From a virus, in the IMG/VR virus record IMGVR_UViG_3300046512_000239, positions 1 through 35,582 of that record: 35,582 bases of DNA; one strand, written 5' to 3'. Positions within the stretch are counted from its first letter, which is position 1. Each line of letters begins with the position of its first letter. The position numbers and the translations under genes were made by a program. Shown one piece after another: positions 2,401 through 32,229 of this stretch. The notes beneath the pieces were generated by a model. The model was not told the origin of the DNA and did not search any database. It worked only from the letters and a program-made list of their open reading frames with translations.

Positions 2401-2828
2401 CACCTGCCGTCCCGAAGCTATTCAAGTCAAAGCCCATGCGCGCCAAGTCAGTCGACCGTGAAGGGCAGGAGCAGGCCGCACTGCTGACTGAGTTGCGCAT
2501 CCGTATGCCGGAGGTGGCTGACCTGATCTATCACGTCCCCAACGGCGGGCATCGGCACGTACTTGTGGCGATGAAGCTGAAAGAGCAGGGCGTGGTCGCC
2601 GGTATTCCCGATCTGGTGCTGACCATGGCTCGCGGTGGCTACTTCGGGCTGTACATCGAGTTCAAGGCTACACCGCCGAACGATGCCCCGATCTCACCGA
2701 GTCAGCACGAACGCATCCGCAAGCTGAATGCCCAGGGCTACTTGGCGGTGGTGTGTCGGGGCCACTTCGACGCGATGGAGCAGATCCGCGCCTATCTGCG
2801 CATGGCTCCGACCGTGGTGGCTGCATGA
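2397..2828 (+). CDS. VRR-NUC domain nuclease
   Basis: This 143-aa protein is a stand-alone VRR-NUC nuclease of the PD-(D/E)XK superfamily. Visible catalytic elements are E25 (GQEQAAL), D72 in GIPDLVL, and E88/K90 in IEFKA, with VPNGGHR between them. Phage VRR-NUC proteins are thought to cut branched DNA or process replication and recombination intermediates. Here it sits in the replication operon where lambdoids keep nin-region recombination genes, and it overlaps the tyrosine recombinase by ATGA. A joint role with that recombinase in resolving replication intermediates is inference. Confidence 0.88.
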   Translation: MTPAVPKLFKSKPMRAKSVDREGQEQAALLTELRIRMPEVADLIYHVPNGGHRHVLVAMKLKEQGVVAGIPDLVLTMARGGYFGLYIEFKATPPNDAPISPSQHERIRKLNAQGYLAVVCRGHFDAMEQIRAYLRMAPTVVAA

Positions 2829-4105
2829 GTAGCGCCGCGGTCAAGATCACAGATGCCGAGATCAAGCGACAGGCTGTCGGCGACGTGCGGGATCTGCGCG
2901 ACATCGAGAACCGTGGCCTGTACCTACGGTTTACTAAGGCCCGCGAACGTGCCTCTTGGTACCTGGTGGTGAAGGGCGAGTGGAAGCGCATCGGCAGCTT
3001 CCCTGACCTCAATGCCAAGCAGGTCGTTGCCGCATTGCCGGCGATTCGTCTGCGCCTCGATGCCGGTGCTGGCTCAAACCTATCAAAGTGGGTTCTGGTC
3101 GGTGAGTTGCTGGGCTGGTACGCCGACCGGATGGCCCGCGACCGTAGCCTGTCGAGCAAGCGCAAAAGGACCGGCGCCTCGCTGATCAAGTGCCACCTGA
3201 AGCCGTTGCTGGGGGCTGTGCCACTGGCCTCAATCAACAAAGCCACCCTGGACGATCAATTCATGTGGCCTGCACAAGAAACCATCGGCATCGACTACGT
3301 GCGCTCAGCGTTTCAGCTGCTGGCCTTGGCATTCCGCCAAGCATTCAAGCTTCGGCTGATCTCGGCCAACCCGATGAAGGACGTCAAGTTCAGCGACTTC
3401 TCCAAGGCCAAGGTGGGGGTGAAGCCGTCACGGTTGCGGGTCACCCAGCTTCAGGAACTGATTACCCTGCTGCGGGATGCCATGGCCAGCGCGCCTGCTG
3501 ACGCCATGCTCGCCCTGATGATGCTGTGCCACGGCACCCGCATTGGTGAGACCCGGCAGGCCCAGTGGTCGCATATCAGCCTTGCTGAGCGGGAGTGGTT
3601 CATTCCAGCCGAGAACACCAAGACCGGCGTCGAGCACCATTTACCACTGACTGACCAAGTACGGCAGATGCTGATCGGTTATCGCGAAACTCAGCGGGTG
3701 AACGGTTACGACGGTCAGTTCCTGTTCCCATCCCGCAATGGCAAGGCCCTGAGTGAAGGTCAAGCCAGTTCCGTGTTCACACGGTTGGGGCAGGGCGAGT
3801 GGACCAGTCACGACCTTCGCAAAGTGGCCCGCACCGGGTGGGCAGATATCGGCATTGACCACCTGATTGGTGAGCTGCTGATCAACCACGCCATGGGCCA
3901 CAACGTGAAGGTGTACATCCAGTCGGACGTGATGAGCCGCAAGCGTGAAGCCTTGGACAGGTGGTGCGCGTATCTAGACGCAAAAGGTTTCAAGCGTATC
4001 CACACCTTGACCGGCTTTAGATCGGGAGATTCTGGTAATGCGCTGGAAGCCTCACAGGATAAGGGCTGCGAGGCCATTCAAGAATCAACCATAGGCGAGG
4101 TTTAA
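2825..4105 (+). CDS. Tyrosine recombinase inside the replication operon
   Basis: Start ATG 2825 (ATGA overlap) gives 426 aa. Residues ~5-75 look like an integrase arm-binding domain (GLYLRF...SWYLVVKGEWKRIGSFPDLNAK), ~85-195 a SAM-like core-binding domain, and ~205-385 the catalytic domain. All six active residues are present: R239 (GTRIGE), K266 (NTKTG), H329 and R332 (SHDLRK), H355 (INHAMGHN) and the nucleophile Y364 (VYIQSD). It is therefore probably active. The position is odd: integrases normally sit next to attP, but this one is about 28 kb from attR and cotranscribed with O/P-like genes. It may be the integrase after a rearrangement, or a resolvase acting on replication products. Confidence 0.88.
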   Translation: MSSAAVKITDAEIKRQAVGDVRDLRDIENRGLYLRFTKARERASWYLVVKGEWKRIGSFPDLNAKQVVAALPAIRLRLDAGAGSNLSKWVLVGELLGWYADRMARDRSLSSKRKRTGASLIKCHLKPLLGAVPLASINKATLDDQFMWPAQETIGIDYVRSAFQLLALAFRQAFKLRLISANPMKDVKFSDFSKAKVGVKPSRLRVTQLQELITLLRDAMASAPADAMLALMMLCHGTRIGETRQAQWSHISLAEREWFIPAENTKTGVEHHLPLTDQVRQMLIGYRETQRVNGYDGQFLFPSRNGKALSEGQASSVFTRLGQGEWTSHDLRKVARTGWADIGIDHLIGELLINHAMGHNVKVYIQSDVMSRKREALDRWCAYLDAKGFKRIHTLTGFRSGDSGNALEASQDKGCEAIQESTIGEV

Positions 4106-28017: not shown

Positions 28018-28443
28018 ATGACCGTTACTGAAAGAGACCGCGACATCCTCGCTCGAACGCTTTGGGGCGAGGCCCGAGGCGAAGGAGTTGCCGGCCAGAT
28101 CGCCGTAGCCTGGACCATCCGCAACCGAGTATTCGACGGCAAAGACCGGTCATGGTGGGGCGAAGGCTATGCCGGTGTGTGCCAAAAGCACTACCAGTTC
28201 AGTTGCTGGAACAGGAACGACCCGAACTTCGCGTACTTGAGTGGCGCGAAGACGATACCGTTCCGCGAATTGGCTCAAGCTAGGATTGCCGCTGACCAGG
28301 TGATCGATGGCAAGGTGCCCGATCCAACCGGTTGCGCCACGCACTATTACGCGACCACCATGCCGAAGGCGCCGACTTGGGTGAAGGGTGCCACACAGAC
28401 CTTGAAGCTGGGGCACCACGTTTTCTTCAAGGATGTGCCATAA
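28018..28443 (+). CDS. Endolysin, SleB-type cell wall hydrolase
   Basis: ATG 28018 with CGGAGAAA upstream gives 141 aa; earlier in-frame starts lie in the terminator. The fold is the SleB/cell wall hydrolase family: RDILARTLWGEARGEG with the catalytic Glu18, then AVAWTIRNRV, and the late GCATHYYATTMPKAPTW motif. No signal peptide is present, so it needs the holin to reach the wall. It is far from the holin genes (about 22 kb), at the right end of the late operon. No Rz/Rz1 spanin pair is recognisable beside it. Confidence 0.9.
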   Translation: MTVTERDRDILARTLWGEARGEGVAGQIAVAWTIRNRVFDGKDRSWWGEGYAGVCQKHYQFSCWNRNDPNFAYLSGAKTIPFRELAQARIAADQVIDGKVPDPTGCATHYYATTMPKAPTWVKGATQTLKLGHHVFFKDVP

Positions 28444-28447
28444 AAGC

Positions 28448-28765
28448 TCACGCTGTGCCTTTTGTTGAGAAGGCTCGAACCTGCTTTTCAAGCTGATCAT
28501 TAATGAAGGTGAGGCGTTGAATCTCGCCCAGCTGCACCGTGGTGTCAGCTTCACGGTTTGCCAGCCAAATGCGAGCTTTCGTCAGGTTCGCTGATAGCTG
28601 GTCGTTCACTTCAACAAGGCCGGAAATATTTTCCTTCGCTGCTCGAAGCTCCCGTTTAAGCGCCTGAATGTCCTCTTCCAGCATGCTTGCGTAATGCTCG
28701 ACGGTTTCTAACCTGGTCGGACTGCCCATCCAGTCGCTGGTGTCTTCGATTTCGTAGGGGTCCAC
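28448..28765 (-). CDS. Coiled-coil protein behind a LexA box (105 aa)
   Basis: GTG at 28765 (read leftward) with AAGG upstream is the only start before an in-frame stop. The 105-aa protein has a short acidic head (DPYEIEDTSDWMGS) and then an almost continuous heptad helix (MLEEDIQALKRELRAAKENI, LVEVNDQLSANLTKARIWL, EIQRLTFINDQLEKQVRAF). No enzyme motif is visible. The perfect LexA box 18 bases upstream makes it a likely SOS-induced gene. Its stop nearly meets the endolysin stop on the opposite strand. Function is unknown; an adaptor or regulator of lysis or host proteins is possible. Confidence 0.7.
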   Translation of the reverse strand: MDPYEIEDTSDWMGSPTRLETVEHYASMLEEDIQALKRELRAAKENISGLVEVNDQLSANLTKARIWLANREADTTVQLGEIQRLTFINDQLEKQVRAFSTKGTA

Positions 28766-28783
28766 GGTAAGGCCTTATTGATA

Positions 28784-28799
28784 CTGTTTGGATATACAG
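28784..28799 (-). promoter_or_regulatory. LexA (SOS) box
   Basis: CTGT-N8-ACAG is perfect (CTGT 28784-28787, ACAG 28796-28799), with flanking TA on both sides and AT-rich spacer. It stands 18 bases ahead of the leftward GTG at 28765, where LexA would block transcription until DNA damage. Confidence 0.8.
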
Positions 28800-29065
28800 T
28801 AATAGAGGCGCAGTGATTGGGCGAGGGTGGAGCGACGAGCAGTAGGATTTGGGGCTTTGTATTCGGTCGGCAGGACGCCGTAGGTGGGATTTTCTGCGGG
28901 AAATTCTTCCCCAAAACGCAACCGTTTGGACCAATGTTTATTGGGTTCTAAAGAGTCGCAAAAGGTGTTGATTTTTGGGGCTGCTTTGTAGCTCAAGGCC
29001 TTGATTATAAAGGACTTTGGCGATTCCTATACGGCATCCCAGGCTTTGATGCCGCATTTCGGAAA
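28800..29065. other. Stretch without a convincing gene
   Basis: Between the LexA box and the stop of the next leftward gene. One leftward frame is open (28775-28996, 73 codons from a TTG, and open further to 29029) but has no Shine-Dalgarno and runs through the LexA box. I see no terminator or tRNA. It may be a promoter or leader region for the SOS gene. Confidence 0.4.
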
Positions 29066-29269
29066 TTATTTTGTAGATATTTGACGGACTATTTTCTCAA
29101 ACGCGTCCTGTGCCTCGTAGAACGAATCCCTGGCAGCCAGCCAGGCAACTAAGTCTTCAGTGGTTGGTGCCACTTTGGCTTGAAGAAAATCCCATTGTTC
29201 GCAGTGGTGATCAAAGGCTAGGTTCGCTTTATCCCTTGATTGATCAAGATATTCGGAGGTGGCTGTCAT
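29066..29269 (-). CDS. Small hypothetical protein (67 aa)
   Basis: The leftward ATG at 29269 has AAGGAATG about eight bases upstream, so I prefer it to the longer in-frame version from 29335, which would translate a strong hairpin. The product is acidic and helical (EYLDQSRDKANLAFDHHCEQ, then WLAARDSFYEAQDAFEKI). No family is recognised. It belongs to the leftward accessory block next to attR. Confidence 0.55.
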   Translation of the reverse strand: MTATSEYLDQSRDKANLAFDHHCEQWDFLQAKVAPTTEDLVAWLAARDSFYEAQDAFEKIVRQISTK

Positions 29270-29305
29270 TAGTGCATTCCTTACCGGTTCGAACTGGTTA
29301 TGAGT

Positions 29306-29326
29306 CTTCCGGCTCGTCGCCGGAAG
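29306..29326 (-). other. Perfect hairpin upstream of the 67-aa gene
   Basis: CTTCCGGC (29306-29313) pairs with GCCGGAAG (29319-29326), loop five bases, no T-run. Beside it is a near-palindrome centred on GTTCGAAC (about 29283-29298). These may be a leader structure or an operator of the leftward gene. Confidence 0.4.
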
Positions 29327-29488
29327 TGACCGCATCTTGTACCTATTTTTGTACTACTGACCGTGTAATGCAGGTGAAAACCGGGTGTGCCTGAGTAGGC
29401 AAATGCCCGGATTCATTGCCTATTGTTACTTTGCCTTACCCTTTAAAGTCACGGTGTAACTCTGTGCGAGCAAAGCTTAGTATACTCG

Positions 29489-30445
29489 TTACCCCGCAGC
29501 GGTATTTAAATAGCCATACTCAGCGATAAGCTGTCGAATCTCCTTTGCATCTTCTGGGTAGTCGATTTCGAGCTTTACAAGCCGTTTTTCAATAAAGCCT
29601 TGTAGCTCCTCATCGAGTGAATTTTTTAACTCGATGAAGTCGGTTTTGATTACACGCTTGAGCTCCATGATAAAGTCTTCGATATGCCATTCTACTCCAG
29701 AGAGTAGTGCGGCATCTAAGCCCTGTAGAGCACTAATTAGCACATTTGCAGGGACTTTCCTGATATCCCAAATCAGCGTTTCCGCTTTGCGAAGCTCTGC
29801 TTTCAAACCGGATTGTATTTTTTCAAGGTTATCTACCTTTGTCTCAAGCTTAGTCGTCCCTGAGAGCAATTGATCAAATTTCCCCTCAAGCGAAAGTCTT
29901 ACGGTTTCAAACTGAGATCTAACTTCGGCAGCTTGATTTAGCATTCTGTTTAGATCTTGTTGACTCCTTGCCTCTTGTACATTCGCCATCTCTTGGCCTG
30001 CTTTGGTAAGACTGGTATCCATCTCGGATCGAAATATTTTTATTTTGGCATCGTAGTCTGCCTGTATTCTTTGTACATCCTTTTCATGGAGTTTAAAGTT
30101 GGTGAAAAGGCTAGCGCCAACTAACAATATCACTACGCTCACTACTGCACTAAGGGACCAGATAACGATCGAAATTAATGAGTTTTGAAAGTCGGCGATA
30201 AGTAAATTTTTTTCTTTCAATATCTTCAGTTCGGTCTCGACAGCTGATTCGATTTTGTCAGTTTTAGGGTTGGCAGGTGATATAGATGGGGCATTGTTGT
30301 TCGTCTCTGAGGCTTTAACTGGGCGCTCGTTGGTAGACGGTAAGGCGGAGGAAATCTGGTTTGCAGTTGACACTTCTCCCAAGCATAACAAAGCCCCAAT
30401 ACTAAGCAACAAAGTTAGCGCGGTTGATCGACAGCGTTTAATCAT
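29489..30445 (-). CDS. Membrane-anchored coiled-coil protein of unknown function
   Basis: The leftward ATG at 30445 has AGGGAG upstream and gives 318 aa; the longer frame from a GTG at 30484 is less likely. Residues 1-28 are a signal peptide-like segment (basic, then LTLLLSIGALLCLG, ending VSTA). A Ser/Pro/Asn-rich linker follows (29-88), then a transmembrane helix (about 90-115, ISIVIWSLSAVVSVVILLVG). Residues ~118-235 form a long coiled coil and the last ~80 a helical domain (VLISALQGLDAALLSGVEWH, EELQGFIEKRLVKLEI). The topology puts the coiled coil in the cytoplasm. The DNA is visibly AT-richer than the phage genes, a sign of separate acquisition. No known family. Confidence 0.8.
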   Translation of the reverse strand: MIKRCRSTALTLLLSIGALLCLGEVSTANQISSALPSTNERPVKASETNNNAPSISPANPKTDKIESAVETELKILKEKNLLIADFQNSLISIVIWSLSAVVSVVILLVGASLFTNFKLHEKDVQRIQADYDAKIKIFRSEMDTSLTKAGQEMANVQEARSQQDLNRMLNQAAEVRSQFETVRLSLEGKFDQLLSGTTKLETKVDNLEKIQSGLKAELRKAETLIWDIRKVPANVLISALQGLDAALLSGVEWHIEDFIMELKRVIKTDFIELKNSLDEELQGFIEKRLVKLEIDYPEDAKEIRQLIAEYGYLNTAAG

Positions 30446-30492
30446 TTTTAGCTCCCTGCGAGTTTTCCGCGAGAATAACACCACAAAGTGGC

Positions 30493-30720
30493 CTATGTGA
30501 AAACTAGGTATCCATCCGGCGCCATCATCACCATGAGGGTCATCTTGATAAATTCTTCATTCTTATCGATGGCTTCCAGGGCGCGGCGCACGTTGTCGGC
30601 TACCTCCGCTGATCCTCTATGCTCAACTCAAAGTGTCAGCTCCATGATGGCGGCTTCCAAGGCGAGTTGGTTTTCGTTGATCTTGAATAGCCGGGAAGGG
30701 AGTAGGTCTGAGTTGGGCAT
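30493..30720 (-). pseudogene. Small ORF interrupted by an in-frame TGA
   Basis: Read leftward from ATG 30720 (GGAGG upstream), 30 codons (MPNSDLLPSRLFKINENQLA, then LEAAIMELTL) run into TGA at 30630-30628. The same frame then continues for 44 codons without further stop (VEHRGSAEVADNVRRALEAI, DKNEEFIKMTLMVMMAPDGY) to TAG at 30495-30493. Both halves have the same helical, charged style, so a TGG-to-TGA change in one gene is the simplest reading. Alternatives are a 30-aa peptide or a sequencing error. Confidence 0.55.
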
Positions 30721-30962
30721 CGCGATTTCCTCCGTGAAAGAGATCAGCGTAGCAATCAAAAAAACTTCTCGGAGGGTTGGGTTGATCGCGTGGCAGAACG
30801 CCAGGGCAGGGAGCGTAGGAATATACAACGCTAAGGTATTGATTCTTAAGGGCAACGTGGCTGTTTTTCAACTGCCTTAAAACGCCTATTTGCCGTTATG
30901 GATCAACAGCTTGCATGGGTTTAGGGGTCACCTTGCCATGGTGGCGTTTCTTTTTAGGCGCA

Positions 30963-31568
30963 TCATGATCGCTGGGGTTGAGCATCACCGTGGTAAATCG
31001 TATGTTGTGGGTTATCAGTAACGCTGCGCGCTGCAATCGCACGCTCAATTGCCGCACGTATTGGCGGTTGACACTCTGAATACTTCATACCTCGGCCAGA
31101 GGGATGCTTGATGTAGGCAATTTCGAATCCCGCAGGAAGGGTGGGAAGGTACTTTTTGAGTTCCTTTCCGAGAATAACAAGCACTTCTGGTTCCACCTCT
31201 TTGAGCACTTTGAGCAGTACTGTTGCCCCCGTGTCCCACATCGCAGCTGTCGGCCTTTGACGAGCTTTGCCACCAACAATCGCCTGCACGTAGTTGCAAA
31301 ACACGACTGAATTCCAAAATGCTCTTTTGCTAGCCACTGAGTATGTCCCGCGCTTCGTATCAAGCGAGACGAGGCGCTGGATTACGCTGAAAAATCTCCG
31401 TCGCTCAGTGATTGCGTAGCGCCCAACGATGTAATTCGTGAAGTCCAACCTCGCATCGGTGGGCTTGCCGTAATGCGACTCACCGAGAATCATAATTCTG
31501 CAATTGTGCTCGCTGCCGGCCTGGTAGTTGGCGCCAATCCATGGTTGAAAAACTCTTTCCATTTCCAT
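30963..31568 (-). CDS. Uracil-DNA-glycosylase-fold-like protein
   Basis: Start is uncertain: ATG at 31568 or 31562 (the latter has GTGAG six bases upstream), or a TTG at 31631. From 31568 the protein has 201 aa. Two landmarks fit the UDG superfamily: CRIMILGESHYG near the N-terminus (the water-activating loop region) and IAYIKHPSGRGMKY near the C-terminus (the HPS-type DNA-intercalation loop), with EPEVLVILGKELKKYLP as the middle strand. Substrate is unknown. It sits beside attR, a usual place for genes protecting the lysogen. Assignment is by motif only. Confidence 0.6.
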   Translation of the reverse strand: MEMERVFQPWIGANYQAGSEHNCRIMILGESHYGKPTDARLDFTNYIVGRYAITERRRFFSVIQRLVSLDTKRGTYSVASKRAFWNSVVFCNYVQAIVGGKARQRPTAAMWDTGATVLLKVLKEVEPEVLVILGKELKKYLPTLPAGFEIAYIKHPSGRGMKYSECQPPIRAAIERAIAARSVTDNPQHTIYHGDAQPQRS

Positions 31569-31793
31569 CTCACTATGTACGGCTCGAACATGCTTCGTAC
31601 GTGTTGTTGTAGACGTATCTAAACCAGCCAAGGGTAGCCGGCTGTTTCACGTTGCCTTTTTTGGGGAGGACTGACAAGTGGGGAGTACTACGGAACGTGC
31701 GCAAAACCTCCGCTGGAGGCCCCGTGTTTCCGTTTGCATAAGCACAAAAAAGAGGATGTTTTGCCACTACCAAATAGGGGTTTTATCCTTATA

Positions 31794-31805
31794 AAGCAAT
31801 TGCTT
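31794..31805. repeat. 12-bp perfect palindrome next to attR
   Basis: AAGCAATTGCTT lies 15 bases before the tRNA-like segment, on the phage side. It could be a recombinase arm or regulatory site, or chance. The rest of 31569-31820 holds no gene I can support; a CCTCC/GGAGG hairpin with a leftward T-run lies near 31710. Confidence 0.35.
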
Positions 31806-31820
31806 ATGTCACTATGGTTC

Positions 31821-31870
31821 CCAGCATGGGGTGCTAGGGGTCGAGTGTTCGAATCACTCCGTCCCGACCA
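31821..31870 (+). other. attR: 3' half of tRNA-Pro(GGG)
   Basis: Anticodon stem-loop CCAGC-ATGGGGT-GCTAG (31821-31837, anticodon GGG, one mismatch), variable loop GGGTC, T arm GAGTG-TTCGAAT-CACTC (31843-31859), acceptor strand CGTCCCG, discriminator A and encoded CCA ending at 31870. The 5' half (acceptor CGGGACG, D arm) is absent upstream, where phage DNA begins. This is the pattern left when a prophage integrates into the 3' end of a tRNA gene; the intact gene should lie at attL. Core length cannot be known without attL. Confidence 0.8.
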
Positions 31871-31886
31871 TATTTTTCAATGACTT

Positions 31887-31914
31887 AGCCCAATCTGAAA
31901 AGATTGGGCTTTTT
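31887..31914 (+). terminator. Terminator belonging to the tRNA locus
   Basis: AGCCCAATCT (31887-31896) pairs perfectly with AGATTGGGCT (31901-31910) around GAAA, followed by TTTT. This is the host terminator of the tRNA-Pro gene, left beside attR. Confidence 0.85.
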
Positions 31915-32013
31915 CATTTCTGGCTTAGGGGTAAACGTAGGGGTAAACACACGCCTTCCTTTTGGAAGTCGATGCGCGCAAATATTTGATTTAGCTGCTG
32001 ATAAGGAAGTGGT

Positions 32014-32229
32014 TCAGCTGCAGCGCGGCATGCGCAACGTGCTGTTGATCCTAAGCCCAATGGTTCGCCGCAGTACCTGCTCCGCCAGTTCAGCATCAGC
32101 GATGCAGATCCGTCCGCTCTCCGTCACGCCGAAAAGTGATTCAGGAATTCGACCCTGGTTGCGCGCCTGAATGATGGCGGCTTTTGATATGCCGATGCGT
32201 CGGGCGATCTCAGTGATGGTGCATCGCAT
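32014..32229 (-). CDS. Orphan HTH DNA-binding protein (71 aa)
   Basis: Read leftward from ATG 32229. The N-terminal ~35 residues form a helix-turn-helix with wing (MRCTITEIARRIGISKAAII, ARNQGRIPESLFGV), similar to small MerR/Nu1/AlpA-like phage regulators, then GRICIADAELAEQVLRRTIG. The last residues (INSTLRMPRCS) look less regular and may be a frameshifted end. It lies outside the prophage's attR but still beside the tRNA, so it may be the trace of an earlier integrated element. Confidence 0.6.
   Translation of the reverse strand: MRCTITEIARRIGISKAAIIQARNQGRIPESLFGVTESGRICIADAELAEQVLRRTIGLRINSTLRMPRCS

What the first reader, a model, noticed from the sequence alone, without database searches (positions are those of the whole stretch)
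28448..31568. Leftward accessory block between endolysin and attR, candidate lysogen defence island
All genes here run against the late genes and do not resemble structural phage genes; part is visibly AT-richer than the phage backbone. A membrane-anchored coiled-coil protein, a UDG-fold-like protein and two small unknown proteins sit where prophages often carry superinfection or anti-phage systems. None belongs to a named system I recognise.
Basis: inference. Interest (0 to 1): 0.68.

Follow-up and report, generated by a model that had tools for sequence, protein, structure and literature searches.

The report
Prophage defence slot with glycosylase-like gene
At the right end of this Pseudomonas prophage lies a cargo slot whose genes differ from one related prophage to the next and often encode known anti-phage systems; here it carries a rare protein with the fold of a DNA-repair glycosylase that may protect the bacterium by cutting bases out of rival phages' DNA.

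Summary
Five leftward genes lie between the endolysin and a tRNA-Pro attR, and the 318-aa gene has 42.7% G+C against 57.7% for the phage backbone. The block is not one island but a modular cargo slot. In 80 sibling prophage contigs two leftward genes recur as bookends: a 105-aa coiled-coil gene and phrog_12397, which carries a nonsense codon here. The DNA between and beside them is swapped. Sibling slots hold Septu, CBASS (cyclase plus Cap15-type effector), pAgo-associated nuclease, SAVED-HNH, TIR and FRG genes: a prophage defence hotspot of the kind described for P2/P4. The UDG-like gene is a clean ~750-bp cassette beside attR. It is a real UDG-superfamily protein (Pfam above cut-off; model matches family-4 UDG 4zby, Z 10.1) of a rare GESHYG clade: 7/399 Pseudomonas genomes, mostly plasmids in E. 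coli. Three chromosomal relatives sit beside Zorya, Dnd/Pbe or Shango genes. Most likely it is an antiviral base-excising glycosylase like Brig/Dag, but catalysis, substrate and phage protection are untested and membership is not shown. The 318-aa membrane coiled-coil protein is a separate rare prophage cargo gene of unknown function.

The parts
28448..28765 (-). 105-aa coiled-coil protein gene (GTG start); recurrent left bookend of the slot, convergent with the endolysin
   Evidence: Relatives downstream of the endolysin in 26 of 80 sibling loci, always leftward; relative at the same place in phage VW-6S
29066..29269 (-). 67-aa ORF of unknown function, preceded by an AAGGA-type ribosome site
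   Evidence: no match in phage records, Pfam or NCBIfam
29340..29464 (-). Conserved non-coding module that stands upstream of different genes in different prophages
   Evidence: 75-89% identical in 8 loci
29489..30445 (-). 318-aa membrane-anchored coiled-coil protein gene, AT-rich; independent cargo unit
   Evidence: G+C 0.427; 4 of 299 Pseudomonas genomes, 4 viral contigs; model with one very long helix
30493..30720 (-). phrog_12397 gene, broken by in-frame TGA at 30628-30630; recurrent right bookend of the slot
   Evidence: Both halves hit phrog_12397 (1.3e-11 and 3.8e-15); siblings have Trp at this codon; present downstream of the endolysin in 34 of 80 loci
30792..30944 (.). Conserved non-coding anchor on the left of the UDG cassette
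   Evidence: Shared with L148, L096, VW-6S and others
30963..31568 (-). 201-aa UDG-superfamily protein of the GESHYG clade, candidate antiviral DNA glycosylase
   Evidence: PF03167 25.8 bits; model Z 10.1 to 4zby; invariant P9 G12 S31 Y33 N92 H155 P156; dN/dS 0.16-0.25
31697..31823 (.). Conserved att-proximal anchor on the right of the UDG cassette; upstream of whichever cargo gene is here
   Evidence: 84-90% identical in L092, L088, L148, L096
31824..31870 (+). attR core: 3' part of a tRNA-Pro gene
   Evidence: Matches tRNA-Pro and att regions of phage records; no complete tRNA in the window

Best explanation
The block is a cargo slot of a temperate Pseudomonas phage, between the lysis cassette and attR, in which genes useful to the lysogen are exchanged between conserved flanks, probably by homologous recombination (inferred). 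In this prophage it holds at least two unrelated cargo units: a UDG-fold protein of the GESHYG clade and a membrane-anchored coiled-coil protein. The UDG-like protein most likely acts as an antiviral DNA glycosylase: made in the lysogen, it flips a modified base of superinfecting phage DNA into its pocket and hydrolyses the glycosidic bond, and the abasic sites block replication of the rival. Own DNA would be spared because it lacks that modification. Shown: fold, patchy mobile distribution, purifying selection, swapped position, defence neighbours of relatives. Inferred: expression in the lysogen, catalysis, the modified-base target, protection against phages.
For: Slot: 80 sibling contigs; recurrent bookends and 116 ORF clusters, 96 singletons, in 34 loci; Septu, CBASS, pAgo nuclease, SAVED-HNH, TIR, FRG genes in sibling slots, also in a rule-picked sample of 35 ORFs. 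UDG cassette: about 55 bp or other DNA in its place in siblings. Protein: Pfam UDG above cut-off, 10 of 15 relatives match the same family at E <= 0.1, fold match to 4zby Z 10.1, pocket Asn and HPS motif kept, dN/dS 0.16-0.25. Mobility and defence context: 7 of 399 Pseudomonas genomes, 65 of 67 E. coli places on plasmids, only evident cargo of a 3.7-kb plasmid, relatives beside Zorya II, Dnd/Pbe and Shango. The lineage already has Ung. UDG-fold antiviral glycosylases are established (PMC11078745, PMC13160076).
Against: No activity, substrate or expression data. The motif-1 Asp of Ung is Ser here, so catalysis is not assured. Most relatives in chromosomes had no defence neighbour that I could see, and those tested were picked by eye. 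Comparison with Brig and Dag sequences was not possible. UDG-like genes also serve repair. An adjacent slot gene is already broken, so decay is possible, though dN/dS speaks against it for this gene.
Confidence: 0.5

Rival explanations
1. The UDG-like protein is an accessory DNA-repair enzyme (uracil or damaged-base excision) that benefits host or phage, with no antiviral role.
For: The fold and the retained pocket Asn and HPS motif are those of repair UDGs; phages and plasmids do carry repair genes, and SRAP abasic-site genes are frequent in sibling slots.
Against: The relative's host already has Ung; distribution is very rare and mobile; the slot and three relatives' neighbourhoods are rich in defence genes.
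Confidence: 0.2
2. The protein has the UDG fold but is not a DNA glycosylase: it acts on another substrate (nucleotide, RNA) or only binds DNA, for example as a toxin or sensor.
For: Ser replaces the catalytic Asp of Ung in GESHYG, and similarity to characterised UDGs is too low for function transfer (10-21% identity).
Against: N92, Y33, H155 and P156 are invariant across very diverse relatives, and several UDG families work without that Asp (established knowledge).
Confidence: 0.13
3. The protein protects the mobile element itself (counter-defence or aid to establishment), which would explain its presence on plasmids next to a type III restriction system.
For: 65 of 67 E. coli places are on plasmids; a plasmid copy lies near type III restriction genes.
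Against: Chromosomal relatives in Zorya, Dnd and Shango neighbourhoods and a slot full of known defence genes point to defence of the cell.
Confidence: 0.12
4. The whole leftward block is one multi-gene system in which the membrane coiled-coil protein and the UDG-like protein act together.
For: Same strand, near each other, in one hypervariable slot.
Against: Each has relatives without the other: UDG-like in G001, which has no coiled-coil hit, and the coiled-coil protein in L073-L076 and L158-L161 with no UDG-like gene seen. A broken gene separates them, and G+C differs (0.427 against 0.513).
Confidence: 0.05

Closest known systems
Brig1 / Brig3 (and Brig2, Dag1, Dag2) antiviral DNA glycosylases
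   Same: UDG-type fold, the same best structural match as Brig1 (4ZBY); single gene; relatives in defence islands.
   Different: Different size and motif 1 (GESHYG; Brig3's reported pocket has N50-P51-S52-R53 and E55); prophage/plasmid cargo; no substrate or activity known; sequences could not be compared.
Family-1 uracil-DNA glycosylase (Ung)
   Same: Fold, pocket Asn (N92) and HPS motif (H155-P156-S157).
   Different: GQDPYH is GESHYG, so the catalytic Asp is Ser; rare and mobile, not housekeeping.
P2/P4 prophage and satellite anti-phage hotspots (Rousset et al. 2022, PMC9122126)
   Same: Conserved flanks around one position with swapped anti-phage cargo.
   Different: Other phage group and position: lysis cassette to tRNA-Pro attR in Pseudomonas prophages; no activity tested for this slot.
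Superinfection-exclusion membrane proteins
   Same: Small membrane-anchored protein encoded as prophage cargo (the 318-aa protein).
   Different: No sequence match to a known exclusion protein was found; the weak PADLOC PD-Lambda-1 hit (E 6e-4) is coiled-coil background.

Membership tests
UDG superfamily (PF03167) | Sequence match above the curated cut-off | tested here: met
   25.8 bits against 24.3
UDG superfamily (PF03167) | UDG alpha/beta fold | tested here: met
   Model pLDDT 82.6; all 50 rows shown are UDG, TDG, MUG or UdgX, best Z 10.1
UDG superfamily (PF03167) | Base-excision activity | not testable with these tools
   Needs purified protein
Family-1 Ung | GQDPYH motif with catalytic Asp | tested here: not met
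   GESHYG; Ser at the Asp position, invariant in 15 relatives
Family-4 UDG | Four conserved Cys for the Fe-S cluster | tested here: not met
   3 Cys in this protein, 0 to 4 in relatives, none conserved
Brig/Dag antiviral glycosylases | Sequence homology to Brig1-3 or Dag1-2 | not tested
Brig/Dag antiviral glycosylases | UDG-type fold close to that of Brig1 | tested here: met
   Best match 4zby, as reported for Brig1
Brig/Dag antiviral glycosylases | Excises a modified phage base and restricts phages carrying it | not testable with these tools
   Needs assays
Brig/Dag antiviral glycosylases | Genes lie in defence islands | tested here: inconclusive
   Three relatives beside Zorya II, Dnd/Pbe, Shango; others without visible defence neighbours
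Prophage anti-phage hotspot (P2/P4 type) | Conserved flanks with swapped content at one position | tested here: met
Prophage anti-phage hotspot (P2/P4 type) | Known anti-phage systems among the cargo | tested here: met
   Septu, CBASS, pAgo nuclease, SAVED-HNH, TIR, FRG
Prophage anti-phage hotspot (P2/P4 type) | Cargo from this slot protects cells against phages | not testable with these tools
   Needs plating tests
Superinfection-exclusion membrane protein (318-aa gene) | Blocks adsorption or DNA entry of phages in the lysogen | not testable with these tools
   Only membrane anchoring and prophage distribution were seen

The most novel reading that the evidence does not exclude
The GESHYG clade is a hitherto unnamed, mobile family of antiviral DNA glycosylases with its own catalytic residue set (Ser in place of the motif-1 Asp) and its own modified-base target, spread by prophages, conjugative plasmids and even minimal ColE1-like plasmids; and the endolysin-attR slot of this Pseudomonas phage group is a previously undescribed defence hotspot in which DUF1643 proteins (L085, L119) may be a second glycosylase type.
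Probability: 0.4. Interest if true: 0.72.

Novelty: new variant of a known kind. Interest (0 to 1): 0.55.

Why it matters
Antiviral base-excision enzymes were recognised only from 2024 and few are known. A compact, mobile clade with a changed active site would widen the range of phage DNA modifications that bacteria are known to attack, and gives a 201-aa single-gene candidate to test. The slot itself is a ready source: dozens of sibling prophages hold swapped genes there, many without any annotation but next to known defence systems, so it can be mined for new systems.

Tried and rejected
Single-sequence scans of viral contigs with the UDG-like and coiled-coil proteins found nothing; alignments found 9 and 4 loci. 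The UDG-like protein has no match in deposited phage records. Its profile finds no solved structure by sequence, and no Brig entry is among the rows shown of the structure searches, which does not exclude it. A link to SRAP, the abasic-site cross-linker, beside relatives in L027 and L026 looked attractive, but SRAP genes are frequent in sibling slots anyway (11 of 80), so it was not used as evidence. The PD-Lambda-1, capH and phrog_4070 hits of the coiled-coil protein were set aside as coiled-coil background. The conserved module at 29340-29464 shows no convincing covariation. Rfam found no RNA in the block. Host-flank matches gave no clean empty site. Promoter-like sites are no more frequent than in shuffles, so lysogen expression could not be argued from them. 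None of the 35 sibling cargo ORFs scanned is a relative of the GESHYG profile, and none of the 80 sibling loci holds a relative of the UDG-like or the 318-aa protein.
Full report
WHAT IS THERE. The window is a virus record (G000): the right part of a Pseudomonas prophage and host DNA beyond it. Rightward genes run from antirepressor, replication and holin genes through terminase and tail-related genes to an endolysin ending at 28443. From 28448 to the tRNA-Pro attR core at about 31824-31870 all genes run leftward: a 105-aa coiled-coil gene, a 67-aa ORF, a 318-aa membrane/coiled-coil gene, phrog_12397, and a 201-aa UDG-like gene. phrog_12397 is split by an in-frame TGA at 30628-30630; siblings read Trp there. 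The 318-aa gene is 42.7% G+C, about six standard deviations below 1-kb phage windows (0.576 +/- 0.023); the UDG-like gene is 51.3%.

THE SLOT. I fetched 80 viral contigs with an endolysin 82-91% identical. The 105-aa gene lies downstream of the endolysin in 26 and phrog_12397 in 34, always leftward; contig ends limit both counts. Between endolysin and phrog_12397 lie 0.6 to 6.1 kb. The slots of the 34 loci give 116 ORF clusters, 96 of them singletons (mechanical ORFs, some surely spurious). Among ORFs of at least 100 aa, 51% are singletons in the slot against 29% in an equal stretch upstream, and 59% against 15% are leftward.

WHAT SIBLING SLOTS CARRY. Ten cargo proteins chosen by eye gave complete Septu (PtuA 3e-128, PtuB 7e-77), a CBASS cyclase (8e-130) with a 2TM effector (2e-93), PDC-S15, a PtuB-like HNH, a SAVED-HNH-like protein and an AriA/GajA-like ATPase. 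To reduce that selection I scanned 35 of 42 leftward cargo ORFs listed by a fixed rule. They again gave CBASS cyclase and effector, and also an Argonaute-associated nuclease, PDC-S35, SAVED-HNH, PtuB, a CAP12/Pycsar TIR and pP_pnuc domains. phiPSA1 and psageK9, with a 97% identical att core, hold a spanin-type gene, a gene annotated as lipase or tape measure, and the integrase there. The slot is thus a prophage defence hotspot in the sense of Rousset et al. (PMC9122126). I found no description of this one in the papers searched.

THE UDG-LIKE CASSETTE. Siblings L092 and L088 join the DNA matching window 30757/30754 to that matching 31697 with about 55 bp between; L148 and L096 share 30515-30944 and 31697 onward but hold 387 and 464 bp of other DNA between. 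The UDG-like gene therefore fills a discrete cassette of about 750 bp beside attR. Its closest relative (83% aa, 85% nt) lies in a P. fluorescens prophage, G001, between a 76% similar endolysin and an integrase, with other neighbours. dN/dS between the two is about 0.16 over the first 180 codons and 0.25 overall, so the protein is under purifying selection.

THE PROTEIN. It passes the Pfam UDG cut-off. An AlphaFold2 model from nine family members (pLDDT 82.6, pTM 0.81) aligns best with family-4 UDG 4zby (Z 10.1, rmsd 3.3 over 145 residues); all 50 rows shown are UDG, TDG, MUG or UdgX. 4ZBY is also the best structural match reported for Brig1 (Dali Z 9.2; PMC11078745). Against the Ung of G001 the motifs line up as GQDPYH to GESHYG, the pocket Asn to N92, and HPS to H155-P156-S157. 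P9, G12, S31, Y33, N92, H155 and P156 are invariant in 15 diverse members. The catalytic Asp of Ung is a Ser, and there is no family-4 cysteine set. It is therefore a distinct clade; whether it is catalytic is not shown.

DISTRIBUTION. The clade is rare: 7 of 399 Pseudomonas genomes including G001, 5 of 369 and 3 of 398 genomes of the class and phylum, again with G001, 9 viral contigs. In E. coli one homologue occurs in 65 of 5,426 genomes, 65 of 67 places on plasmids. Another is the only evident cargo of a 3.7-kb mobilizable ColE1-like plasmid. Chromosomal relatives sit beside Zorya type II ZorA/B/E (L018), in a Dnd/Pbe region (L065, where the relative has lost GESHYG) and beside Shango SngABC (L068). 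Others had no defence neighbour that I could see within about 20 kb.

THE MEMBRANE COILED-COIL PROTEIN. It occurs in 4 of 299 Pseudomonas genomes, 4 viral contigs, and no deposited phage or plasmid record. Relatives lie in an integrated element beside an integrase (L073), near ATPase-like genes (L074, L159), in prophages in the replication/early-late region (L075, L160, L161), and beside phrog_12397 (L158). The family conserves the TM and juxtamembrane residues, and the model is an N-terminal helix followed by one very long helix and a small helical C-terminus. It behaves as an independent cargo gene. A superinfection-exclusion or membrane-effector role is a guess.

HOW IT LIKELY WORKS. DNA glycosylases of the UDG type can be antiviral: Brig1 removes alpha-glucosyl-hmC (PMC11078745) and Brig3 removes 5hmC (PMC13160076). 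Brig2 and Dag1/Dag2 remove modified thymine and guanine according to citing papers (the Getz preprint itself is not held). A rare, mobile, selected UDG-fold gene in a hotspot of known defence genes, in a lineage that already has Ung, fits this role best. I put antiviral glycosylase at about 0.5, repair at 0.2, non-DNA or non-catalytic function at 0.13, element self-protection at 0.12 and a joint system of the whole block at 0.05. That the slot is a defence hotspot I hold at about 0.9.

LIMITS. The left prophage end and the host genome are missing, so the attL integrase was not seen. No expression data exist. Brig and Dag sequences could not be compared. Most defence neighbours of relatives were tested after being picked by eye, without a matched random control. 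Slot ORFs were called mechanically without manual curation.

Noticed in passing
window 29340-29464 (and L156, L142, L120, L102, L085, L115, L022): A ~125-bp non-coding module, 75-89% conserved, stands upstream of different genes in different prophages (67-aa ORF here, phrog_12397 in three, unrelated ORFs in others). It has a CCGGG...CCCGG hairpin followed by T-rich DNA and GGTACAAAAATTGGTAC; perhaps an insulating terminator/promoter or a recombination anchor.
   Followed up: partly
L085:10654-11214 (-); L119:10275-10703 (-): Sibling slots hold DUF1643 proteins (30% identical to each other; the L119 one lies beyond phrog_12397, where the window has the UDG-like gene). MNPS...LN...HPLY motifs resemble UDG motifs, including the N50-P51-S52 pocket residues reported for Brig3; a possible second glycosylase type, by motif only.
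   Followed up: partly
window 30493-30720: phrog_12397, a recurrent small gene beside the att site of these prophages, is broken by an in-frame TGA where siblings have Trp; its function is unknown.
   Followed up: yes
slots of L085, L089, L111, L115, L149, L156 and others: Many leftward cargo ORFs beside known defence genes have no Pfam or PADLOC match; candidates for unknown anti-phage genes.
   Followed up: partly
L027:6591-7271; L026:6395-7051; 11 sibling slots: SRAP (abasic-site cross-linking) genes lie next to two UDG-like relatives and in 11 of 80 sibling slots; the link may be chance, but glycosylase plus SRAP would make biochemical sense.
   Followed up: partly
window 31904-32229: Just beyond attR lie the direct repeat GGGGTAAACGTAGGGGTAAAC and a leftward HTH (excisionase-like) ORF at 32014-32229, which may be the remnant of a second element integrated at the same tRNA.
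   Followed up: no
window 28443-28448: No spanin (Rz) gene follows the endolysin, unlike many siblings, VW-6S and phiPSA1; the leftward 105-aa gene starts at once.
   Followed up: no
window 2753-4105: An integrase-family gene (phrog_1) sits inside the replication-to-holin region, far from attR; the integrase of the tRNA-Pro site is presumably beyond the left end of the record.
   Followed up: no
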